Below, in pieces: positions 31,072-43,203 of a stretch of DNA of 58,485 nucleotides. The notes beneath the pieces were generated by a model. The model worked only from the letters and a program-made list of their open reading frames with translations, searched no databases and was not told where the DNA came from. The stretch spans positions 92,049-150,533 of the forward strand of contig WTWZ01000024.1 in assembly GCA_009773765.1 (NCBI GenBank). The letters run 5' to 3'. Both the position numbers and the translations under genes were made by a program. Within the stretch, counting starts at the first letter, position 1, and each line of letters opens with the position of its first letter. Source of the DNA: Prolixibacteraceae bacterium (lineage in GTDB: Bacteria; Bacteroidota; Bacteroidia; Bacteroidales; Prolixibacteraceae).

Positions 31072-32469
31072 ATGTTATATCAGTCAACAATATGCGCTAT
31101 TTCAACCTCGCCCGGAATTGGGGCAATTGCCGTTATCCGCCTTTCGGGAAATGAAGCCATTCAAATTGCCGGTAAAGTTTTTCAAAGTCCTAATAAAGAA
31201 AAATTATTAACAGAACAACCAGCCAACACTTTACATTTTGGGCAAATTGTTTTTAAAAATGAAGTGGTTGACGAAGTTATTGTTGCCATTTTTAGGTCGC
31301 CACATTCGTTTACCGGCGAAGATATTGTTGAAATTTCGTGCCATGGTTCTGTTTTTATTCAGCAAGAAATACTTGAAATTTTAGTTGAAAACGGAGCCAG
31401 GTTAGCCTTGCCCGGCGAATTTACCCAGCGTGCTTTTTTAAACGGTAAAATGGATTTATCTCAGGCCGAAGCCGTTGCCGATGTAATTGCCTCGTCGAAT
31501 GCGGCCGCACACAAACTGGCAATTAATCAGATGCGTGGCGGGTTTTCACGGGAAATAAACGATTTACGCGCTAAAATGCTGCATTTTACCGCCATGGTTG
31601 AACTCGAACTCGATTTTGCCGAAGAAGAAGTTGAGTTTGCCAATCGCAGCCAGTTGCGTGCTTTAACCGAAAAAACAGAATCGCTGCTGCGAAAACTTAA
31701 GGATTCATTTCAACTCGGAAATGTTATTAAAAACGGGATTCCGGTTGCAATTGTTGGCGATACAAACGTAGGAAAATCAACACTTTTGAATGCCTTACTC
31801 AACGAAGAAAAAGCAATTGTTTCTCATATTCACGGAACCACGCGCGATGTAATTGAGGATGTGGTAAATATACACGGAACTGCATTTCGGTTTTTTGATA
31901 CTGCAGGAATTCGGGACACCCAGGATCACATTGAAACCCTTGGAATTGAGCGGAGTTACAGCAAACTAACCCTTGCAAGCGTGGTTCTGCTGGTTGTGGA
32001 TATGCAAAACCCCTACCCCATTGTAAAACAACGAATTGACAAGATACGGAAACGAATATATGGCGATCAGAAATTGATTATTGTAGCCAACAAAATTGAT
32101 TCGGGATTGCATGAAACCATTCAGCAAATGGAAGTTACCGAAATCAACGACAATGAAAAGCTGATTTTTATTGCCGCCAAAAAGAAACAAAACCTTGAAG
32201 AACTGATTGAAATGATGATTCATTCAGTAAATATTGATGCTGTGAATCGGGAAGATGTTATTGTAACCAACGCCCGTCACTTTGAAATTCTGAAAAATGC
32301 CCACGAAGCAATTGTAAGGGTATTAAACGGAATTGACTCCGGAATTACAGGCGATTTTTTGGCTCAGGATATTCGAGAATGTCTGCATTATTTGGCCGAA
32401 ATTACGGGAGAGGTGGGAACAGAAGAGGTTCTCGGGCACATTTTTAAGAATTTTTGTATTGGAAAGTAA
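31072..32469 (+). CDS. mnmE: tRNA modification GTPase MnmE
   Basis: A 465-residue TrmE/MnmE. The N-terminal tetrahydrofolate-binding domain opens STICAISTSPGIGAIAVIRLSG. The G domain has G1 GDTNVGKS (about 227), G2 GTTRDVIED, G3 DTAGIRDT and G4 NKID, and the C-terminal FCIGK supplies the Cys used in the family. With MnmG it forms the 5-carboxymethylaminomethyl group on U34 of tRNAs. Its last five codons and stop lie in a 21-bp direct repeat that bounds an integrated element, which restores the same amino acids. It is therefore the host gene of an integration site but apparently intact. Confidence 0.96.
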   Translation: MLYQSTICAISTSPGIGAIAVIRLSGNEAIQIAGKVFQSPNKEKLLTEQPANTLHFGQIVFKNEVVDEVIVAIFRSPHSFTGEDIVEISCHGSVFIQQEILEILVENGARLALPGEFTQRAFLNGKMDLSQAEAVADVIASSNAAAHKLAINQMRGGFSREINDLRAKMLHFTAMVELELDFAEEEVEFANRSQLRALTEKTESLLRKLKDSFQLGNVIKNGIPVAIVGDTNVGKSTLLNALLNEEKAIVSHIHGTTRDVIEDVVNIHGTAFRFFDTAGIRDTQDHIETLGIERSYSKLTLASVVLLVVDMQNPYPIVKQRIDKIRKRIYGDQKLIIVANKIDSGLHETIQQMEVTEINDNEKLIFIAAKKKQNLEELIEMMIHSVNIDAVNREDVIVTNARHFEILKNAHEAIVRVLNGIDSGITGDFLAQDIRECLHYLAEITGEVGTEEVLGHIFKNFCIGK

Positions 32470-32472
32470 CCA
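32452..32472 (+). repeat. attL: core repeat at mnmE 3' end
   Basis: TTTTGTATTGGAAA then GTAACCA. It contains the last codons and stop of mnmE. Compared with the copy at 40540-40560 it differs at one base (AAG against AAA, both Lys). Confidence 0.88.
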
Positions 32473-32510
32473 CCACAAAACAACCAATTATCAAACTATT
32501 AATAAACCCT

Positions 32511-32538
32511 AAAAAGCCCAGTAAAATAGGGCTTTTTT
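32511..32538 (+). terminator. Terminator just inside attL
   Basis: AAAAAGCCC at 32511-32519 pairs with GGGCTTTTT at 32529-32537 around a 9-nt loop, with a further T. It ends mnmE transcription about 40 bases after the att core, and so is supplied by the element. Confidence 0.75.
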
Positions 32539-32594
32539 GATGTTTGTAAATATAGGTTTATTTCGTGTTAATATTAGTTTTTTAATATTATATT

Positions 32595-32611
32595 TGTACC
32601 TTATTTGTACC
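32595..32611 (+). repeat. Putative integrase arm site, left
   Basis: TGTACCTTATTTGTACC, identical to 40485-40501 near the other end and in the same orientation. It is itself a tandem of TGTACC. A further TGTACC lies at 32644. Confidence 0.6.
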
Positions 32612-32634
32612 GTTTTGAAAAACGGGCTTTTTTT
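32610..32634 (+). terminator. Hairpin with T-run near left arm
   Basis: CCGTTT, TGAA loop, AAACGG, then GGC and seven T residues. A short 6-bp stem overlapping the right side of the arm repeat; may insulate the element. Confidence 0.45.
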
Positions 32635-32696
32635 GACTGAATTTGTACCTCGAAAGGTTTACAAATTTTACAAATTGGAACACTTTAATACAGAAT

Positions 32697-32716
32697 AGTA
32701 CAAAATGAGTACAAAA
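32697..32716 (+). promoter_or_regulatory. Paired AGTACAAAA repeats over start codon
   Basis: AGTACAAAA occurs at 32697-32705 and 32708-32716, 11 bp apart and spanning the ATG of the HTH gene at 32705. Such phased repeats over a start fit autorepression, or simply reflect codon coincidence, since the second copy is coding. Confidence 0.3.
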
Positions 32717-33298
32717 ATTGAAGTAATAAGAATTTGCCAGCATTGCGGTAAGGAATTTACAGCCCGGACAACAACAACGGCCTATTGTTCGCTACATTGC
32801 AACAGAATAGCATATAAGGCCAAACAGAGGGCTGAAAAGATTGAAGCAAGCAATAAGGAAACCCAACGAATAAAGAATTTGCCGATTGAGGAACTGAAAA
32901 AAAGGGAATTTTTAACAGTAACCCAGGTTTCAAAGTTAATAAGCTGTTCCCGTCAAAATGTTTACAGCCTCATCAATACCGGAAAGCTGAAAGCGACGAA
33001 CATTTTATTAAAGAAAACAATTGTTAAGCGTTCAGACCTTGATAAACTATTTAAAGAGCCGACCAACCGACTGAAAACCGAAGGCATACCCGAAACACAA
33101 AAGCAGGAATTAAAGGAATGGTTACAGGCTGGGGCGTTTGATATTGCCGACTGTTACTCCTTTAACGAAGTGCAGGACAAATACGGTATTTCTGAAACAG
33201 CATTACAGGAAGTAATTGAGCAAAACAGCATACCAAAAATAAAAAAGGGCTGGTTTGCATACGTTCCGAAACCCATTATTGATAAACTATTGAGTTAA
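32705..33298 (+). CDS. Zinc-ribbon and double-HTH regulatory protein
   Basis: A 197-residue protein. An N-terminal zinc-binding motif is formed by Cys11, Cys14, Cys28 and Cys32 (CxxC ... CxxxC). A helix-turn-helix of the excisionase/MerR-like type (FLTVTQVSKLISCSRQNVYSLINTGKLKA) covers about residues 69-97, and a second HTH-like segment about 150-190 (SFNEVQDKYGISETALQEVI). It is the first gene of the element and likely a directionality factor or regulator. Paired AGTACAAAA repeats lie across its start. Similar proteins begin many Bacteroidota integrative elements, as far as I recall. Confidence 0.75.
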   Translation: MSTKIEVIRICQHCGKEFTARTTTTAYCSLHCNRIAYKAKQRAEKIEASNKETQRIKNLPIEELKKREFLTVTQVSKLISCSRQNVYSLINTGKLKATNILLKKTIVKRSDLDKLFKEPTNRLKTEGIPETQKQELKEWLQAGAFDIADCYSFNEVQDKYGISETALQEVIEQNSIPKIKKGWFAYVPKPIIDKLLS

Positions 33299-33318
33299 AC
33301 CATTTAAATAATAAACTA

Positions 33319-33945
33319 ATGAATGAAAGCGAAATTGATGAAATACTTTTTGGGATTGGAGTTGATAGTTTCAACCGATTTCAAACCTTTATTAAGTTGA
33401 TGCCAAAACTTAAAGGTAAAAGTTATTGGTATGCTTTGCGGAATAGTTACGATATGAGTGATAATCTTTTTGAGTATTCAGGAATTGTAAAGGGTTGTTT
33501 TTTAAAAGATGAACCACAAAGGGAAAATTTAATGTTCCCCGATGAATTTGAATATTTTAAAAACCTACCTGAACAAATTATCATTTTCAGGGGAATGACT
33601 GAAAAAGAATTGAAACAAAAATCTTTTGGCTGTTCGTGGACACTTAAAAAAGAAGTTGCCGAATTTTTCGCAAACACTTACCAAAGGAATTTTGCAACAA
33701 ATCATTTTAAAAAAGTAGTTCACGAAATGACTATTTACAAAAGTGAAGTAATTGCATTTTTCAATAATAGAAATGAGTTTGAAATAATTTACATAAAAGA
33801 CAATGGTAATAAAAGTAAAGTTAAGGCAAAAACCTATTTCAGGGAACAGGCAAAGTTTGTATTTGGATTTTTACCCCGCTGTTTCTCATCCCGAAACAGG
33901 CGAACTAACCCGACGGGAGTTTTTAGGGCTGTATATCAATTCTGA
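33319..33945 (+). CDS. ADP-ribosyltransferase-like protein overlapping integrase
   Basis: The 208-residue frame has the R-S-E pattern of ADP-ribosyltransferases: Arg91 in IIIFRG, Ser106-Trp-Thr108 in the GCSWTLKKEVAEFFA segment, and Glu153-Phe-Glu155 in RNEFEII. Related phage and mobile-element proteins of about this size have the same order (YRG, SWT with A-FF, R-E-E). The last 47 codons (from about residue 162) overlap the integrase start in another frame by 143 nt, so the C-terminus is probably not native. It may be a toxin or defence-type ART; no antitoxin is evident. Fold assignment is from motifs only. Confidence 0.6.
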   Translation: MNESEIDEILFGIGVDSFNRFQTFIKLMPKLKGKSYWYALRNSYDMSDNLFEYSGIVKGCFLKDEPQRENLMFPDEFEYFKNLPEQIIIFRGMTEKELKQKSFGCSWTLKKEVAEFFANTYQRNFATNHFKKVVHEMTIYKSEVIAFFNNRNEFEIIYIKDNGNKSKVKAKTYFREQAKFVFGFLPRCFSSRNRRTNPTGVFRAVYQF

Positions 33946-34981
33946 AAAGGTAAAAGATAAAAACGGCAAAATTAAGAACATCAAATTAAGCCCTATTGAT
34001 AAGCAACACAATACTGATACCTTAAAAATTGCTGAACAGATAAGGCAGAAACGGGAAAATCATTTAAACAAGCCCGAAATTTACACCGGGTACGAAAAGG
34101 AACAATTAAAGATAAAAGAGCAGGGCGAACAAAACTTTGTTGCCTACTTTAAAAAACTTACCGACAAACGAAAAGACAGCAACCATAATAACTGGGTTTC
34201 AACTTATAAATACCTTGAAACATTCACAAAGGGAAATTTGAAATTTGCCGACCTGAACGAAAAATTTTGCGATGAGTTTAAAGAGTATTTACTCAACACC
34301 AAAAGCAATAAAAGCGATAAAGTAACACTTGCCCAAAATTCAGCGGTTTCTTATTTTAATAAACTGAAAGCAGCACTAAAACAAGCCTATAAAGACGGGT
34401 ATTTACAAACCGACCTGAACGCAAAAATTGAACCTATTGAACAGGCCGAAACCCGAAGGAATTTTTTAACTATCAAGGAACTGAACAGCCTTGTAAAAAC
34501 AGAATGTAATAACCCTTTATTGAAAAGTGCAGCCCTGTTTTCAGCCCTCACCGGATTGAGGTTTGCAGATATTAAAAAGCTGGTTTGGGGCGAAATAGAA
34601 TTTGTTGCAAATGACGGTTATGTTATTCGTTTCACACAACAAAAAACAAAAGGAGTTGAGGATTTGCCAATTTCTGAACAGGCTTACAGCTTACTGGGTG
34701 AACGCAAAGAACCCACTGAAAAAGTATTTCCCGGCCTTACTTATTCCGCTTATGAAAACAAACACCTGTTCCAATGGATTGGAGCAGCCGGGATAACAAA
34801 AGATATTACCTTTCATTGTTTCCGGCATACTTTCGCCACCTTGCAACTATCAAAAGGAACTGATATTTATACCGTTTCAAAAATGCTGGGACACCGTGAC
34901 TTGAAAACCACGCAGATTTATGCAAAGATTATTGACGACACCAAACGCAAAGCATCTGATAAAGTAAAATTGGATATGTAA
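33803..34981 (+). CDS. Tyrosine integrase of the mnmE element
   Basis: A 392-residue site-specific recombinase. An N-terminal arm-binding region (VIKVKLRQKPISGNRQSLYLDFYP) precedes a SAM-like core-binding domain (about 110-210) and the catalytic domain. Catalytic residues visible are Arg in ALTGLRFADIKK (about 253), His-x-x-Arg in FHCFRHTFATLQ (about 336), His in MLGHRDLKTTQ (about 361) and the nucleophile Tyr in QIYAKI (about 372). All needed residues are present, so it appears functional. Its ATG lies inside the preceding frame. It most likely recombines the 21-bp core in mnmE and binds the TGTACC arm sites. Confidence 0.93.
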   Translation: MVIKVKLRQKPISGNRQSLYLDFYPAVSHPETGELTRREFLGLYINSEKVKDKNGKIKNIKLSPIDKQHNTDTLKIAEQIRQKRENHLNKPEIYTGYEKEQLKIKEQGEQNFVAYFKKLTDKRKDSNHNNWVSTYKYLETFTKGNLKFADLNEKFCDEFKEYLLNTKSNKSDKVTLAQNSAVSYFNKLKAALKQAYKDGYLQTDLNAKIEPIEQAETRRNFLTIKELNSLVKTECNNPLLKSAALFSALTGLRFADIKKLVWGEIEFVANDGYVIRFTQQKTKGVEDLPISEQAYSLLGERKEPTEKVFPGLTYSAYENKHLFQWIGAAGITKDITFHCFRHTFATLQLSKGTDIYTVSKMLGHRDLKTTQIYAKIIDDTKRKASDKVKLDM

Positions 34982-35003
34982 CCACTTAAAGCATAAAAGA
35001 CAA

Positions 35004-36137
35004 ATGAATGATTTTGAAAACGATTTTGAGCAATATTTGAAACACCTTGATTTAGTTGAAAAAAACGACCCTGAAAAGTATGAATATATCAAAGAAATTG
35101 CAGACAGTATAAAGGATATTGATTTAAGTAAACTAATTGAAAAAATTGCTCTTTCTTTTGAAAAGAGCAAAAATGAATATTCAGAAATAACAGGCAAAGC
35201 GGGTAGAGAAATATTCGCAAAGGAACAAATTGAACTTTACATCTATGCCAACCACAGATTTAAAAGGTTTGGCGAATATTCAAATGCCACCTTTGATAAA
35301 TACCAACCAATATTTATTGAAGCCCTTGATTTTTGGAAAAAGGAACATGAATTTTTAAAGCAGGAACATGAATTTGGAACTGTTTTTAAAGACATTGATA
35401 GTTGGGTTGAATGGCTAACTATTAACCCCGAATTGGCTGAAAAATATTACCCTAATGTTACAAACGGATTAAAGGAAAGAATACAAAAAAGCCCACCTTT
35501 TCAAATGGCTTTAATTATTCAAAAACTACCCGACCATTTCCCGAAATGGAAAACCAAAGCTGAAAAGTATTTTGGCACTAAAAGAAAAAAAATAATAAAT
35601 GGGTATATTAACCTTATCAAAACTGTTTTGTTTGAATACGAATACCCCGGCGAAATAGAACAACAAGCAATTGAAAGTGTTAGGGCTGAACTTACCGAAC
35701 AACTGGAATACTGGGAAAACGATATAAAAAACTTACCACCTCAACCAATTGAAACGAAAACTGAACTTACTCTCCTGAATTTAAAGATTGGAAAAGCATT
35801 TGGTTTTATGAAAGGAAACGATCCCCGTAAACACGAAAAAATTTTGAATGAAACCGATTTTAATAATTTGATTGAATGGATAACTTACTTTTTTGAAAAT
35901 AATTTTGAAGTACCGAGAATTTCTGAACCAATAAAAAAAGTAAATACCAGCAAAGGAAATGTTATTTATACTTTTATGAGTTTTTATAAAAGCGAACACC
36001 CCGCAAAAACCAGACCAGACAGCCTTTTTGAACTTATTAAGGCTTGTTTCAAAGAGTATAGAAACGATGAATTAGATAACCTGAAAAAGACAAAAAAACC
36101 ACAGTATTATGATGTTTTGATTAATGACAATAAATAA
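35004..36137 (+). CDS. Hypothetical protein of the mnmE element
   Basis: A 377-residue, charge-rich soluble protein starting MNDFENDFEQYLKHLD. No signal peptide or membrane helix is evident. The first 130 residues are acidic and helical; a middle Trp-rich segment (SWVEWLTINPELAEKYYPN) and a C-terminal part (IEWITYFFENNFEVPRISEPIKKVNTSKGNVIYTFMSFYK) are distinctive. I do not recognise a domain. It directly follows the integrase by 22 bases and precedes the HTH/RepA genes, so it may be an accessory replication, excision or cargo function. Confidence 0.6.
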   Translation: MNDFENDFEQYLKHLDLVEKNDPEKYEYIKEIADSIKDIDLSKLIEKIALSFEKSKNEYSEITGKAGREIFAKEQIELYIYANHRFKRFGEYSNATFDKYQPIFIEALDFWKKEHEFLKQEHEFGTVFKDIDSWVEWLTINPELAEKYYPNVTNGLKERIQKSPPFQMALIIQKLPDHFPKWKTKAEKYFGTKRKKIINGYINLIKTVLFEYEYPGEIEQQAIESVRAELTEQLEYWENDIKNLPPQPIETKTELTLLNLKIGKAFGFMKGNDPRKHEKILNETDFNNLIEWITYFFENNFEVPRISEPIKKVNTSKGNVIYTFMSFYKSEHPAKTRPDSLFELIKACFKEYRNDELDNLKKTKKPQYYDVLINDNK

Positions 36138-36230
36138 ACTTGTACTTGCCGTAAACACGTAAGAAACCCGTAAAGTAAGCGAAAACCCGTTTCTAATCTT
36201 CGCGAAGTAAAATAAAAAATACTTTGTGAA

Positions 36231-36584
36231 ATGGAACAAGTCTTAACATTCGACCAGTTGCCCACAGCGGTAACAATGCTAACAAAAGAAATTAGCGAAC
36301 TGAAACGCCTGTTAATTGAGAAACAGGAACAAACACCAACCGAACAACCCGACCAGCTTTTAACCATTCAGCAAACAGCCAACTTTTTGAGTTTGGCAGT
36401 ACCCACAATTTACAGCATGGTGAGCCGGGGCGAATTGCCAGTAATGAAGCGAAGCAAACGCCTGTACTTTTCAAAAGTTGAGTTAATCAATTATTTAAAG
36501 CAAGGCAGAAAAAAGACGTTTGCAGAAACAGCAACCGAAGCCGACCAGTATTTAAAAAGAAAGGGGCTGAACAATGGAAAATAA
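36231..36584 (+). CDS. Helix-turn-helix (excisionase-type) protein
   Basis: A 117-residue protein with an N-terminal coiled coil (MLTKEISELKRLLIEKQEQ) and a C-terminal HTH of the MerR/Xis-type (LLTIQQTANFLSLAVPTIYSMVSRGELPVMKRSKRLYFSKVELINYLKQGRKK, about 43-95). This fold is typical of excisionases and small regulators in Bacteroidota integrative elements. Its last 11 bases overlap the start of the RepA-like ATPase, suggesting translational coupling of both proteins. Confidence 0.8.
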   Translation: MEQVLTFDQLPTAVTMLTKEISELKRLLIEKQEQTPTEQPDQLLTIQQTANFLSLAVPTIYSMVSRGELPVMKRSKRLYFSKVELINYLKQGRKKTFAETATEADQYLKRKGLNNGK

Positions 36585-37704
36585 CCAACTGAACAGCCCT
36601 GAATCTTTGCATAAAAGACAAAGCGAAGATACAAATTTTAAATCACTTAACCCCGTGTTCGACTTTGATAAATACGGGATTGGAGCAGAAGATATTAAGG
36701 ACGAATCGGAAAGGCTTTTTAATGAAGGTAACGAAGCCAAAGAAAGTAAAGGACTGTTCACTGTTAAAACTGCAAGCCGATGGATTGAACAGGCGAAAAC
36801 CCGGCCTATTCCCAAAATGCTTTTTGGTGAATTTTGGTTCGAAGGTGAACTTTGTATTTTGTTTGCTGATACCAATTTAGGAAAGTCAATTTTAGCCGTT
36901 CAAATCGGTAACAGCATAAGCCGGGGCGAACAAATACCGGGCTTTAAACTGGAAACACAAAAGCAACTGATTTTGTATTTTGATTTTGAGTTAAGCGACA
37001 AACAATTTGAAAACCGATATTCTGTAAAATTTGAACATCATTACTCTTTTGATAACAATTTTATTCGGGTTGAAATAAACCCCGATGCTTTTGCCCCCGA
37101 TGGGATTTCAAATGAGAATTACCTCAACCATTCATTAGAACGGAGTATTACAGAAACCGGGGCAAAGGTTTTAATCATTGATAATCTTACTTACCTAAAA
37201 AATGAAACCGAAAAGGCCAAAGATGCTTTACCATTAATGAAGCATTTGAAAGCGTTAAAGAATAAATACGGACTATCAATTTTAGCACTTGCACACACAC
37301 CAAAAAGGGATTTATCAAAACCAATTACCCGAAATGATTTACAAGGCAGTAAGATGCTGATAAATTTTTGTGATAGTTCCTTTTCAATCGGTGAAAGCCA
37401 CAGCGACAAAAATTTACGATACCTCAAACAGATTAAGCAACGGAATACCGAACAAATTTACGATGCTGAAAATGTTTGTGTTTGTCAAATTGATAAACCC
37501 TTTAATTTCTTAATGTTTGAGTTTGTGAATTATGGTAAGGAATGGGAACACCTGAAACAGCACACCGAAAAGGACAAAGAAAGCCTAAACGAAAAGGTAA
37601 ACGAACTAAAGCAACAAGGGCGAAGTTATCGGGAAATAGGGGCTGAATTGGGTATTTCTCACATGAAAGTAAGCAGAATTTTAAAGGACTGTAACACACT
37701 GTAA
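36574..37704 (+). CDS. RepA-like AAA ATPase with C-terminal HTH
   Basis: A 376-residue RecA/DnaB-type ATPase of the RepA (AAA_25) group. Walker A is ADTNLGKS (98-105), preceded by GELCILF; the Walker B is KVLIIDNLTYL (about 196) and the following ALAHTPKRDLSKPITRNDLQGSKM matches the catalytic loop of hexameric helicase-like RepA proteins. The C-terminus (about 340-373, LKQQGRSYREIGAELGISHMKVSRILK) is a sigma-70-like HTH. The stop is inside an array of phased repeats that runs past the gene, so the protein may bind its own origin. Initial ~60 residues are acidic and probably disordered. Confidence 0.8.
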   Translation: MENNQLNSPESLHKRQSEDTNFKSLNPVFDFDKYGIGAEDIKDESERLFNEGNEAKESKGLFTVKTASRWIEQAKTRPIPKMLFGEFWFEGELCILFADTNLGKSILAVQIGNSISRGEQIPGFKLETQKQLILYFDFELSDKQFENRYSVKFEHHYSFDNNFIRVEINPDAFAPDGISNENYLNHSLERSITETGAKVLIIDNLTYLKNETEKAKDALPLMKHLKALKNKYGLSILALAHTPKRDLSKPITRNDLQGSKMLINFCDSSFSIGESHSDKNLRYLKQIKQRNTEQIYDAENVCVCQIDKPFNFLMFEFVNYGKEWEHLKQHTEKDKESLNEKVNELKQQGRSYREIGAELGISHMKVSRILKDCNTL

Positions 37705-37752
37705 CACCTGTAACACCCTGTTACAACTGTTACACCTGTTACACCTGTTACA
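37690..37752. repeat. Iteron array, seven copies, two orientations
   Basis: TGTAACA at 37690, 37700 and 37709 and its reverse complement TGTTACA at 37719, 37728, 37737 and 37746. Spacing is 9-10 bp, close to one helical turn. The array begins in the last codons of the RepA-like gene, spans its stop and ends about 15 bases before the primase-like start. This is the classic position and structure of an iteron replication origin, or of an autoregulatory site for the primase gene. The two opposed sets could also pair to a large hairpin. Confidence 0.7.
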
Positions 37753-37767
37753 CTGAAAAGATTAAAA

Positions 37768-38874
37768 ATGAATGAACACCGATACATATTACAGCCATAC
37801 AAGGGAATGAACACCCGCCACCATTGCCCCAGTTGCCAGGTGAATGATAAAACCTTTTCGCTTTACATTGACACCGAAACCAACCGTGAAAGTAATTGCG
37901 GTTACCATTACACCCCGAAACAATATTTTCAGGATCATAATATTTCCTTTGAAGGAACGGAACCAAAAGCATACAAGCCCCGGCCTGTTACAATCAAAAC
38001 AAAGCCTGTTTCATTTATTCCGTTTGAGGTATTTAAAGCCAGCCTGAAAGCACACGAAACAAACCACTTTATAAAATTCCTTATTAGCCTGTTCGGGGTT
38101 GAGGTTGCCAGCCAACTGGTAAGCCGTTATTTTATTGCCACTTCAAAACATTGGAACGGTGCAACGGTATTTTGGCAAATTGATACACACGGCAAAGTTA
38201 GAACGGGCAAAATAATGCTTTACAGCCCCGCCACGGGCAAACGGGTAAAAGAACCTTACAATCATATCAATTGGGTTCATTCATTGCTTAAACAGCCTGA
38301 ATTTGAGTTAAGGCAATGTTTGTTCGGCGAACACCTTTTGAGTATTGACAAAAACAAACCCGTCGCAATTGTGGAAAGCGAAAAAACGGCTGTAATTGCC
38401 AGCGTTTATTTGCCCCGGTTTATTTGGGTTGCCGTTGGCAGTCTTACCAACCTGAACGCTGAAAAATGCAGCATATTAAAGGGGCGAACTGTTACACTAT
38501 TTCCCGACCTGAACGGGTTTGAAAAATGGAACAGCAAGGCAAAGGAACTATCACTCCTTGCCAGTTTTCAGGTTTCCGGTTTACTGGAACGCAAAGCCAC
38601 CGAAGCAGATAAAAAACAAGGTTTCGATATTGCTGATTATTTGATAAAATTTGATTTTCGTGAATTTGCCCCACCTGAACCGGGAGCCAGCGAATTAATC
38701 CCGGCTGTTCAGCAATTTGATGAAGTGAAACCAAAGCCCGAACCAGTTGAAACTTTGACTGAACTTTGCACCGTTGGATCTGTATTTGATTACTATTATA
38801 AAAAAGGGTGCAAACATTTGCCGCCCGGAATAATTATAAATGTACCCGGTTGGCCAAATAATAGATATAATTGA
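37768..38874 (+). CDS. Primase-like protein with zinc finger and Toprim-like core (DUF6371-type)
   Basis: A 368-residue protein. N-terminal residues 18-48 carry a CHC2-like zinc site: HHCPSC and, after 20 residues, CGYHY. A Toprim-like core is suggested by PVAIVESEKTAVIAS (about 205) and TVTLFPDLNGFEKW (about 247), where the Glu and Asp would hold Mg2+. These features are typical of primases of mobile elements and of DUF6371 proteins in Bacteroidota. It follows the iteron array and the RepA-like ATPase, forming a helicase-origin-primase module. The last 80 residues are unassigned. Confidence 0.7.
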   Translation: MNEHRYILQPYKGMNTRHHCPSCQVNDKTFSLYIDTETNRESNCGYHYTPKQYFQDHNISFEGTEPKAYKPRPVTIKTKPVSFIPFEVFKASLKAHETNHFIKFLISLFGVEVASQLVSRYFIATSKHWNGATVFWQIDTHGKVRTGKIMLYSPATGKRVKEPYNHINWVHSLLKQPEFELRQCLFGEHLLSIDKNKPVAIVESEKTAVIASVYLPRFIWVAVGSLTNLNAEKCSILKGRTVTLFPDLNGFEKWNSKAKELSLLASFQVSGLLERKATEADKKQGFDIADYLIKFDFREFAPPEPGASELIPAVQQFDEVKPKPEPVETLTELCTVGSVFDYYYKKGCKHLPPGIIINVPGWPNNRYN

Positions 38875-38906
38875 TTAATTTTACTGTTATCATAAATTGT
38901 ATTGAT

Positions 38907-39113
38907 ATGAAAACAAAAGAACAGGTTTTAACTATTGGTTTAAGAGAAACACTCAAAACCATTATGCAAAAGGAAATTGAAAGGCTACCTGAAACCCTTG
39001 AAGCATTAGAGCCAAAAGAGCGGCTGAACGTGCTTTGTAAATTAATGCCGTTTGTGTTCCCTAAAGTTGAATCGGTACACCCCACAGAAGGCGAACCATT
39101 GCAATGGAGTTAA
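38907..39113 (+). CDS. Small hypothetical protein (mnmE element)
   Basis: A 68-residue protein, MKTKEQVLTIGLRETLKTIMQKEIERLPETLEALEPKERLNVLCKLMPFVFPKVESV. It is predicted to be largely helical. The ATG at 38907 is chosen over an in-frame ATG 12 codons earlier, which overlaps no ribosome site. It resembles the small terminase-small-subunit-like or RNA-polymerase-inhibitor-like proteins of other elements only superficially. Function unknown; it follows the primase by 32 bases. Confidence 0.55.
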   Translation: MKTKEQVLTIGLRETLKTIMQKEIERLPETLEALEPKERLNVLCKLMPFVFPKVESVHPTEGEPLQWS

Positions 39114-39156
39114 ACAAATTCCTTAATAATTTAGGTTTGTGAAAATTATTTTTGAT

Positions 39157-39741
39157 ATGGCAAAAATTTCAACTTTCCCGGCCTTGTACAATGAAGCGTT
39201 GCAAATTAATATTTCAAAACTGAAACAATGGGGCTACCTTGAACCGGGACAAATAAAAAGCGGTACACTTAATTGGAGCAGCAACGGAAACCCCACAGGC
39301 AGCATTTCAATAAGTGGAAACACCCACGACGAACAACCATACATTGAGCTGGATTACAAATTCAGGGATGAACCACGGAAATATAAAATTTACTTTACCT
39401 CAATTCGCTCAAACCTTAACCGGGGCGAAATATGGTATTTCATTTGCCCGCAAACAAAAAAGCGTTGCCGCAAACTTTATTCAATAGGCGGTTATTTTTT
39501 GCACCGTGCAGCGTTCCGGGGCTGCATGTACGAAATACAAACCCGAAGTAAATACAGCAGGTTTTTAAATAAAATGCTGGGTTGTTTAGATATTGACCAG
39601 TATTACGAACAGATTTACAAAAAGCATTTCAAAAAATCGTATGCCGGAAAACCAACAAAAAAGTATTTGAAAATTACCCGGCAAATACAAAGAGCAGAAA
39701 ATATTTCAACCAGGGAACTTGAAAGGCTTTTATTAAGGTAA
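39157..39741 (+). CDS. Hypothetical protein, possibly zinc-binding (mnmE element)
   Basis: A 194-residue protein starting MAKISTFPALYNEALQINISKLKQWGYLEPG; a GTG six codons earlier is also in frame. The first part looks like a beta-rich domain (GTLNWSSNGNPTGSISISGN). The segment YFICPQTKKRCRKLYSIGGYF (about 95-115) has the Cys-x7-Cys and flanking pattern of a small zinc ribbon, and the C-terminus is basic (KKSYAGKPTKKYLKITRQIQRAENISTRELERLLLR), suggesting nucleic-acid binding. I do not recognise the family. Likely part of the element's DNA metabolism. Confidence 0.55.
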   Translation: MAKISTFPALYNEALQINISKLKQWGYLEPGQIKSGTLNWSSNGNPTGSISISGNTHDEQPYIELDYKFRDEPRKYKIYFTSIRSNLNRGEIWYFICPQTKKRCRKLYSIGGYFLHRAAFRGCMYEIQTRSKYSRFLNKMLGCLDIDQYYEQIYKKHFKKSYAGKPTKKYLKITRQIQRAENISTRELERLLLR

Positions 39742-39864
39742 ATTGATGGCTTTTATAATATTAAGTCAAAAACAGAAATAAATTGTCAAATCTTCATAGA
39801 AATATATTGGTTTTCGTAAATTGAGCAAAATTTAAAAAAATCAATCTTTTTTAACTACAAAATC

Positions 39865-40353
39865 ATGAAAAAATATTTTTTAATTCTTTTAATGTTACCA
39901 GTATTTACTAAAGGTCAAAATTTATTAATAGATGAGCAAACAGGAAAATATGCAAAGCAAGCGGTAATTGAAGTTGAAAATCAACCAAAACAGCTAATTT
40001 ATAAAAAAGCGGTTGAATGGATTACACTAAATTATAAATCAGCAAATGATGTTATTCAACTGAAAGATGAAAGCGAAGGAAAAATTATTTTAAAAGGTAA
40101 TTTTTCATCAAATATGTATATGAAAGCGGGTTTGATAGAACATACATTGATATTAGAATTTAAGGACAATAAATTTCGATATTCATATACAGATTTAGCC
40201 TATTATAGCGCTGGAAGTGGTAAAATGCCATTTGAAGGAAATCTGATGTCTAAAAAGAAATTATTATCCAATACTGAACAGGATATTGATAATTCAATTA
40301 AAAGTTTAAGCGAATACATATTTAAAAGCTATAATTCTAAAGACGATTGGTAA
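39865..40353 (+). CDS. Secreted protein with DUF4468-like fold (cargo)
   Basis: A 162-residue protein with a Sec signal peptide (KKYFLILLMLPVFTKG). The rest has alternating beta segments (QAVIEVENQPKQLIYKKAVEWITLNYKSANDVIQLKDESEGKIILKGNF; HTLILEFKDNKFRYSYTDLAYY), as in DUF4468 proteins, which have a TBP-like fold and occur mainly in Bacteroidota. It has its own promoter-like AT-rich upstream region and no obvious tie to the replication genes, so it is probably cargo. Precise role unknown. Confidence 0.65.
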   Translation: MKKYFLILLMLPVFTKGQNLLIDEQTGKYAKQAVIEVENQPKQLIYKKAVEWITLNYKSANDVIQLKDESEGKIILKGNFSSNMYMKAGLIEHTLILEFKDNKFRYSYTDLAYYSAGSGKMPFEGNLMSKKKLLSNTEQDIDNSIKSLSEYIFKSYNSKDDW

Positions 40354-40484
40354 TCCTATTTTTTTGTGTTCAAATGTTATCCGTTCAGCAACGAATGACA
40401 GAACAAAAAGTTTTTTTTCGGTTTGAAAAGTACTCAAAATAAAAACCTAAATTTGGCTATATTTTATTGTTTTCAGTACTGAAG

Positions 40485-40501
40485 TGTACCTTATTTGTAC
40501 C
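40485..40501 (+). repeat. Putative integrase arm site, right
   Basis: TGTACCTTATTTGTACC, identical to 32595-32611, 39 bases inside the attR core. Same orientation as the left copy. Confidence 0.6.
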
Positions 40502-40539
40502 TTGAAAATATAATACATTGATAATCAATTTATGTTATA

Positions 40540-40560
40540 TTTTGTATTGGAAAATAACCA
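40540..40560 (+). repeat. attR: core repeat at right end
   Basis: TTTTGTATTGGAAAATAACC plus A, the second copy of the att core. It encodes FCIGK-stop of mnmE in frame just as attL does, so the host gene would be restored after excision. Confidence 0.88.
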
Positions 40561-43123: not shown

Positions 43124-43203
43124 CCGGCACTTAATTTTTATTTTGATGTGAACGCTGTTTTACAAAAACTTATGTGTATTTAATTTCGGGTAATAAAAAC
43201 TTT

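What the first reader, a model, noticed from the sequence alone, without database searches (positions are those of the whole stretch)
32452..40560. Integrative element inserted in the last codons of mnmE
21-bp direct repeats differing at one base bound about 8.1 kb. Both copies encode the MnmE C-terminus FCIGK and its stop, so the host protein is preserved on either side. The gene downstream of the right repeat (SNF2 helicase) would be the natural neighbour of mnmE. Salmonella genomic island 1 also uses the mnmE (trmE/thdF) 3' end, so an unrelated Bacteroidota integrase appears to have converged on the same site.
Basis: partly seen in the sequence, partly recalled or inferred. Interest (0 to 1): 0.75.

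Follow-up and report, generated by a model that had tools for sequence, protein, structure and literature searches.

The report
Small mobile island parked in mnmE
An 8.1-kb mobile DNA island sits in the last codons of the tRNA-modification gene mnmE without breaking the gene, and relatives of its integrase use the same spot across the Bacteroidota phylum, in islands and in phages.

Summary
Observation confirmed: 21-bp direct repeats, one mismatch, bound 8,088 bp, and both encode F-C-I-G-K-stop. The mobile-element reading is well supported. Of the best 80 integrase relatives in genome contigs, 69 lie directly behind mnmE; 42 of 80 viral relatives have the same codons near int. Metagenomic contig L166 holds right end joined to left end through one perfect core: a circle or tandem junction. 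The element supplies the end of the core and, in 20 of 34 left ends, a terminator-like hairpin; TTTGTACC repeats mark both ends. It has a complete-looking integrase, HTH proteins, a helicase and a primase-like protein, but no recognised relaxase, conjugation or virion gene, so it resembles a phage satellite or relaxase-less mobilisable island. SNF2 is not shown to be mnmE's natural neighbour. "Unrelated, converged" conflicts with a published classification that puts the SGI1 recombinase in the IntCTnDOT subgroup together with Bacteroidetes integrases, and SGI1 ends show the same half-core geometry. Common descent is now the better guess; I could not test it.

The parts
31072..32469 (+). mnmE (host gene; its last codons are the attachment core)
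   Evidence: ORF 465 aa; nearest full-length relatives in same-genus genomes 76-81% identical
32452..32472 (+). attL core, FCIGK-stop + CCA
32511..32538 (+). element-borne intrinsic-terminator-like hairpin just behind the mnmE stop
   Evidence: 20 of 34 left ends have one, 0.12 in shuffles; fold z -2.6. Not listed by the consensus scan (its loop limit is 8), which found terminator-like sites little above chance in the region (12 against 8.3)
32593..32715 (.). left arm-site cluster, TTTGTACC/T repeats, three + and two - (that such repeats are arm-type integrase sites is inferred)
   Evidence: 80 sites in 34 left ends against 1.2 in shuffles
32705..33298 (+). HTH1: excisionase-like, cysteine-rich N-terminus + HTH_17; between mnmE and int in most relatives
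   Evidence: PF12728 3.4e-14; TIGR01764 just below cut-off
33319..33945 (+). ORF2, cargo between HTH1 and int; resembles an ADP-ribosyltransferase by eye (RG...SWT...EFE; motif recalled); last ~50 aa overlap int in another frame
   Evidence: phrog_4776 2.8e-24 (unknown function); L253 48%; fold job not returned
33803..34981 (+). tyrosine integrase with arm-binding, core-binding and catalytic domains; R253 K281 H338 R341 H364 Y373 present (catalytic assignment from the alignment and recall)
35004..36137 (+). ORF4, slot A: mosaic gene directly behind int
   Evidence: no Pfam family
36231..36584 (+). HTH2, helix-turn-helix protein (excisionase/regulator type)
   Evidence: PF12728 2.6e-11
36574..37704 (+). 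AAA_25 replicative-helicase-like protein with C-terminal HTH
   Evidence: PF13481 1.3e-19; 91% identical in L088
37768..38874 (+). DUF6371 + Zn_ribbon_16, primase-like (function inferred)
   Evidence: PF19898 4.4e-67, PF21957; PG0870_Nterm just below cut-off
38909..39113 (+). short ORF, unknown
   Evidence: no family
39157..39741 (+). orf9, protein of unknown function near the right end, also in related elements
39865..40353 (+). DUF4468 protein, right-end cargo
   Evidence: PF14730 2.8e-14; phrog_4002
40486..40501 (+). right arm site GTACCTTATTTGTACC
   Evidence: 14 sites in 12 right ends against 0.1
40540..40560 (+). attR core, second FCIGK-stop; its 3' part is inferred to be the original host end of mnmE

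Best explanation
An integrative mobile element of a Bacteroidota-wide family. A tyrosine integrase of the IntCTnDOT type recombines an attP core with the last codons of mnmE. Inferred reaction: Int binds TTTGTAC arm sites at both ends and exchanges strands inside the core, most likely in TGTATnGG (codons C-I-G). The integrated mnmE then keeps its own 5' part and takes its last codons, stop and what follows from the element, often with a ready-made terminator; the old host end is pushed to the right as attR. The core encodes the conserved FCIGK end of MnmE, so the site is nearly the same in every host and the gene stays intact; this explains the wide host range. HTH1 is the likely excisionase. 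The AAA_25 helicase and the DUF6371 protein probably replicate the excised circle. With no recognised relaxase, conjugation or virion gene, transfer must depend on a helper, most likely a phage (satellite-like), otherwise a conjugative element acting on a borrowed oriT. Slots between HTH1 and int, behind int, and before attR carry exchangeable cargo. Shown: ends, site, family, joined-ends contig, occupancy differences. Inferred: arm-site role, excisionase, replication, helper.
For: repeats; 69 of 80 relatives behind mnmE, 69 of 69 keep FC[IV]GK-stop; 24 of 29 order loci; second core behind int in the window and 13 other loci; the window's element and 12 of the 13 measured at 7.4-11.2 kb, the 13th, L150, spans 5.3 kb; 3' flank conserved at attL, host-like at attR: position 19 p=1.2e-4, position 15 p=0.016; terminators, arm sites; joined ends in L166; 137 mnmE and 33 other labels need 12 changes against 30.7 shuffled; L088: Int 82%, AAA_25 91%, DUF6371 81% but MnmE 49%: transfer between distant hosts; 15 and 108 (occupancy 14 of 29 in the genus, 4 of 14 across the order); 48, 49 (no relaxase family among 99 of 136 ORFs).
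Against: No exact empty site from a close relative. L166 could be a tandem junction instead of a circle. The set A1 used for the 80-locus searches was itself mostly mnmE-linked (17 of 18 rows), which favours mnmE-linked hits. Some integrases of the set lie elsewhere (8 of 80; a 17-row clade). Position-3 and position-12 differences between attL and attR are not significant, so the exchange point is only bounded on its 3' side. The window's own element has not been seen excised. Two weak virion-type matches exist: phiKZ_IP at 7e-4 in one cargo ORF and a small-terminase family at 0.0025 on the HTH end of the window's helicase.
Confidence: 0.88

Rival explanations
1. Relaxase-less integrative mobilisable element: it excises and is conjugated by a resident Bacteroidota ICE through an oriT mimic, instead of being packaged by a phage.
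For: No virion-hijack gene was recognised. SGI1, which uses the same kind of site, is mobilised by conjugation (PMC2297512, passages). Bacteroidetes IMEs are mobilised by ICEs (PMC5704250, passages).
Against: No relaxase or mobilisation family in 99 of 136 ORFs of 13 elements; size and helicase/primase content resemble satellites. oriT was not searched for.
Confidence: 0.35
2. Decaying remnant: a once mobile element, now fixed, whose genes serve the host.
For: Relative to L166 and L088 the window copy has a shorter primase-like ORF (368 against about 424 aa) and lacks their small ORF before the helicase. ORF2 is wedged in and overlaps int.
Against: Integrase, HTH1, helicase, both cores, arm sites and terminator look intact.
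Confidence: 0.2
3. The SGI1 integrase and this one reached the mnmE end independently.
For: Hosts are of different phyla; the SGI1 backbone families are not seen here.
Against: PMC8138268 places the SGI1 recombinase in the IntCTnDOT subgroup with Bacteroidetes integrases; same core codons and same half-core geometry (PMC9035990). Not tested here: no SGI1 Int sequence was available.
Confidence: 0.3

Closest known systems
Salmonella genomic island 1 and related trmE/mnmE islands
   Same: Same target (last 18 bp of mnmE/trmE), int end next to the mnmE side, last bases of attL brought by the element and those of attR by the host, tandem arrays, recombinase of the IntCTnDOT subgroup (PMC2297512 passages; PMC9035990 passages and section 17; PMC8138268 section 11).
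   Different: 8 kb against 42-43 kb; no tra/mps families seen, no integron; host phylum Bacteroidota; AAA_25/DUF6371 module.
Bacteroides NBU1/NBU2-type mobilisable elements
   Same: Bacteroidota tyrosine integrase (NBU1 is named in the IntCTnDOT subgroup), small size; a primase gene in NBU1 (recalled).
   Different: They target tRNA genes and encode a MobP relaxase (PMC5704250, passages); none was recognised here.
Phage satellites (PICI, PICMI, P4-like)
   Same: 7-20 kb, integrase, regulatory and replication genes, no structural genes (start of an abstract in the listing, PMC13376191).
   Different: No helper phage, packaging site or capsid-interference gene shown.
Riemerella anatipestifer 10K genomic island
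   Same: Small Bacteroidota island, tyrosine integrase sufficient for integration and excision (PMC6764341, abstract and passages).
   Different: Arg-tRNA target, 53-bp repeats.

Membership tests
mnmE/trmE-specific integrative element (broad sense) | Insertion in the 3' end of mnmE with the C-terminus rebuilt | tested here: met
mnmE/trmE-specific integrative element (broad sense) | Integrase linked to that site in relatives | tested here: met
SGI1 family | SGI1 backbone (traN, traG, mpsA/B, AcaCD control) | tested here: not met
   no such family named among the window's ORFs; family scans only, no direct comparison with SGI1
SGI1 family | Integrase orthologous to SGI1 Int | not testable with these tools
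   no SGI1 Int obtained; literature only
IntCTnDOT tyrosine recombinases | Arm-binding + core-binding + catalytic domains of the Bacteroidetes type | tested here: met
   PF17293, PF13102, PF00589; residues. That PF17293 and PF13102 mark this subgroup is recalled; the section of PMC8138268 read speaks of updated Pfam entries without numbers
Integrative mobilisable element (IME) | Relaxase | tested here: not met
Integrative mobilisable element (IME) | oriT used by a helper | not tested
   no oriT search made
Phage satellite | Integrase, excisionase/regulator and replication gene without virion genes | tested here: met
   weak virion-type matches at 7e-4 and 0.0025 noted
Phage satellite | Induction and packaging by a helper phage | not testable with these tools
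   needs experiment
NBU elements | tRNA target and MobP relaxase | tested here: not met

The most novel reading that the evidence does not exclude
The 3' end of mnmE is a phylum-wide dock for Bacteroidota mobile elements, served by one integrase lineage shared by small relaxase-less islands and temperate phages. SGI1, the resistance island of enteric bacteria, got its integrase and its mnmE target from this lineage by transfer between phyla, not by convergence.
Probability: 0.4. Interest if true: 0.75.

Novelty: new variant of a known kind. Interest (0 to 1): 0.55.

Why it matters
It adds a protein-gene attachment hotspot to a phylum whose described small elements often target tRNA genes. It explains how one integrase lineage can work in many classes of the phylum: the core is the codons of the conserved MnmE C-terminus. 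It supplies further elements with both ends and a joined-ends contig as material for integration vectors in Bacteroidota. It also turns the 'convergence with SGI1' remark into a testable question about where the SGI1 integrase came from. No paper on mnmE integration in Bacteroidota was seen in the listings of my searches of the held library; long result lists were shown only in part, and subscription papers and preprints are not in the library.

Tried and rejected
Chance repeat: rejected. SNF2 as mnmE's neighbour: not supported. Older nested element between attR and 43174: the best remnant near 43179 differs from the core at 5 of 18 positions (my count), not used. Targets of the 'other' integrases: tRNA scan of 13 loci found one tRNA, not beside int. 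ORF4 relatives: none in viral contigs, 1 of 296 phylum genomes, the own one, but parts in related elements. ORF2 structure: job accepted, not finished at the last look; the ORF4 fold was never accepted. ORF2 against solved structures: nothing useful. 'ART' matches in relatives are mostly the out-of-frame shadow of the int start and were not counted. 'orf8' in my scripts was read in a wrong frame (6 stops) and is ignored. L150 has a second core behind int but I left it out. For one search, rows labelled 'unknown' and proteins under 300 aa were dropped: 170 rows used. Of the 24 non-genus genomes, 17 were asked for and 14 had 3 kb or more behind mnmE.
Full report
OBSERVATION. The two 21-bp repeats are at 32452-32472 and 40540-40560, with one G/A difference in the lysine codon, 8,088 bp apart. 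No third copy exists in the window within 3 mismatches, and shuffles give 0.01. The left copy is the end of mnmE (465 aa), and the right copy repeats F-C-I-G-K-stop. The stretch is less GC-rich (0.350) than its flanks (0.391, 0.397).

CONTENT. In order: HTH_17 protein with a cysteine-rich N-terminus (HTH1), ORF2, tyrosine integrase (arm, core-binding and catalytic domains), ORF4, a second HTH_17 protein, AAA_25 helicase-like protein, DUF6371/Zn-ribbon protein, two small unknowns, DUF4468 protein. The integrase has R253, K281, H338, R341, H364 and Y373. No relaxase, type IV secretion or capsid family was named in the window's ORFs; a small-terminase family matches the HTH end of the helicase at 0.0025, which I take as an HTH match.

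THE SITE BELONGS TO THE INTEGRASE FAMILY. In a sample of 247 genomes of the order, 37 have the integrase at E<=1e-60. Of the 29 loci returned from other genomes, 24 have the MnmE C-terminus upstream on the same strand within the 1.5 kb fetched (in one search one of the five misses is labelled 'other' and four 'unknown'). The profile was built from 18 integrases of which 17 were mnmE-linked, so this sample leans towards such loci. Among 80 viral contigs found with the same profile, 42 have the core within 1.5 kb upstream of int and 11 show MnmE itself. By my count on that output, 19 have the core, no MnmE, and at least 2 kb of other sequence before it, as an attP would; one of these, L189, also encodes a tail protein and a reverse transcriptase, so temperate phages use the lineage too. 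On a 170-row tree the label mnmE/other needs 12 changes against 30.7 when shuffled; this is a FastTree tree with several long branches. Eight of 80 genome loci have another site.

ENDS AND MECHANISM. The window and 13 other loci have a second core behind int. I measured the window's element and 12 of the 13 at 7,396-11,207 bp; the 13th, L150, spans 5,286 bp and was left out. Cores were found by a motif that fixes part of the sequence and has no match in shuffles of the 80 loci. Among loci with integrase identity of at least 60%, the 3' part of the core and what follows are alike in 33 left cores (GGAAAGTAACC in 20 of 33) but not in 11 right cores (1 of 11, p=0.004); position 15 p=0.016, position 18 p=0.04, position 19 p=1.2e-4, position 28 p=1.5e-5. 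Positions 3 and 12 are not significant. So the exchange lies 5' of position 15, and the element supplies the end of mnmE. Behind the stop, 20 of 34 left ends carry a terminator-like hairpin (0.12 in shuffles). TTTGTACC/T motifs number 80 in 34 left ends (1.2 expected) and 14 in 12 right ends (0.1 expected). The shuffles keep single-base composition only, and these sequences are related, so the counts show conservation rather than independent origin. The window hairpin folds at -11.7 kcal/mol, z -2.6. The consensus scanner did not list it (loop limit).

JOINED ENDS. L166, a 6,683-bp contig of the viral collection, has helicase (90% identical), DUF6371 (79%), right-end arm site, one core identical to the window's left core over 21 of 21 bases, then left end, HTH1 and integrase (82%), without mnmE. 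The gene behind int is cut by the contig's right end; the left end opens with a 67-codon frame that matches a stretch behind int in L102 (72%), and the two parts are in the same frame, with no terminal repeat (a one-in-three chance for frame alone). This fits a circle opened inside that gene; a tandem array cannot be excluded.

TRANSFER AND OCCUPANCY. L088 (Chitinophaga) has 82% integrase, 91% helicase and 81% DUF6371 identity to the window, but 49% for MnmE. In the window's genus 14 of 29 mnmE loci, its own included, have an integrase of this kind (35-70% identical apart from the own one) within 1.5 kb (30 loci returned from the 37 genus genomes; one ends inside the core). Across the order 4 of 14 genomes with at least 3 kb behind mnmE have HTH1 and Int there. 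L088 has a second element (integrase 39%) behind its second core. L113's left core is preceded by an element-type right end.

NEIGHBOURS. In G272 mnmE abuts the 174-aa gene. In G271 12 kb without this integrase lies between them, followed by the same three genes. The C-terminal piece of SNF2 occurs in 3 of 37 genus genomes. So the host order before insertion is unresolved, and SNF2 may itself be a newcomer.

CARGO. Scanning 99 of 136 called ORFs of the 13 measured elements gives backbone families (HTH_17, DUF6371, Zn_ribbon_16, AAA_25 or D5_N) and cargo families seen once each: a type IIG restriction enzyme, a HigB-type toxin, a RadC protein, PD-Lambda-2 defence proteins and others; one weak phiKZ_IP match (7e-4) is the only virion-like family among them (the defence library was run on 44 of these ORFs and its list was cut at 25 families). 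The gene behind int is a mosaic. In 34 elements with integrase identity of at least 55% its N- and C-terminal parts recombine: L087 and L101 share the first 185 aa at 74%, while L086, L088, L097, L098, L101 and L107 share about 130 C-terminal aa at 39-92% with mostly different N-termini. The window's copy shares its middle with L098 (71% over 128 aa) and its end with L115 and L126.

KNOWN SYSTEMS. SGI1 uses the last 18 bp of the same gene, forms tandem arrays (PMC2297512, passages) and brings the last 9 bp of attL (PMC9035990, section 17). Its recombinase is listed in the IntCTnDOT subgroup with those of CTnDOT and NBU1 (PMC8138268, section 11). Convergence of unrelated enzymes is therefore the weaker reading, but I could not place the SGI1 enzyme in the tree. 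By gene content the element is closer to phage satellites than to SGI1; membership in either is not established.

VERDICT. A real, well-bounded integrative element, probably still functional, of a widespread mnmE-specific Bacteroidota family. The kind is known; the phylum-wide use of this protein-gene site by islands and phages, and the likely link to SGI1, are the parts worth following.

Noticed in passing
   Followed up: partly
window 35004-36137 and the same slot in 33 other elements: The gene behind int is a mosaic whose N- and C-terminal modules are swapped between elements; function unknown, perhaps exclusion, immunity or defence.
   Followed up: partly
window 33319-33945: ORF2 lies between HTH1 and int in this copy and runs 143 bp into int in another frame; in most close relatives HTH1 is followed closely by int.
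   Followed up: partly
L152, L155, L160 and viral loci such as L170-L180: A 17-row integrase clade of this family without an mnmE core upstream; its target was not found (no tRNA beside int in the members scanned).
   Followed up: partly
L189, L209, L210, L211: Viral loci with two FCIGK-stop cores 21 bp apart upstream of int, as if a short att remnant had been duplicated.
   Followed up: no
L002 (G000:C78): A second integrase (43-50% identical) with an HTH1 relative in the same genome, at a contig end; site unknown.
   Followed up: no
L272 (G176:C15): Contig ends inside the mnmE core in a same-genus genome, as expected at a repeated or variable attachment site.
   Followed up: no
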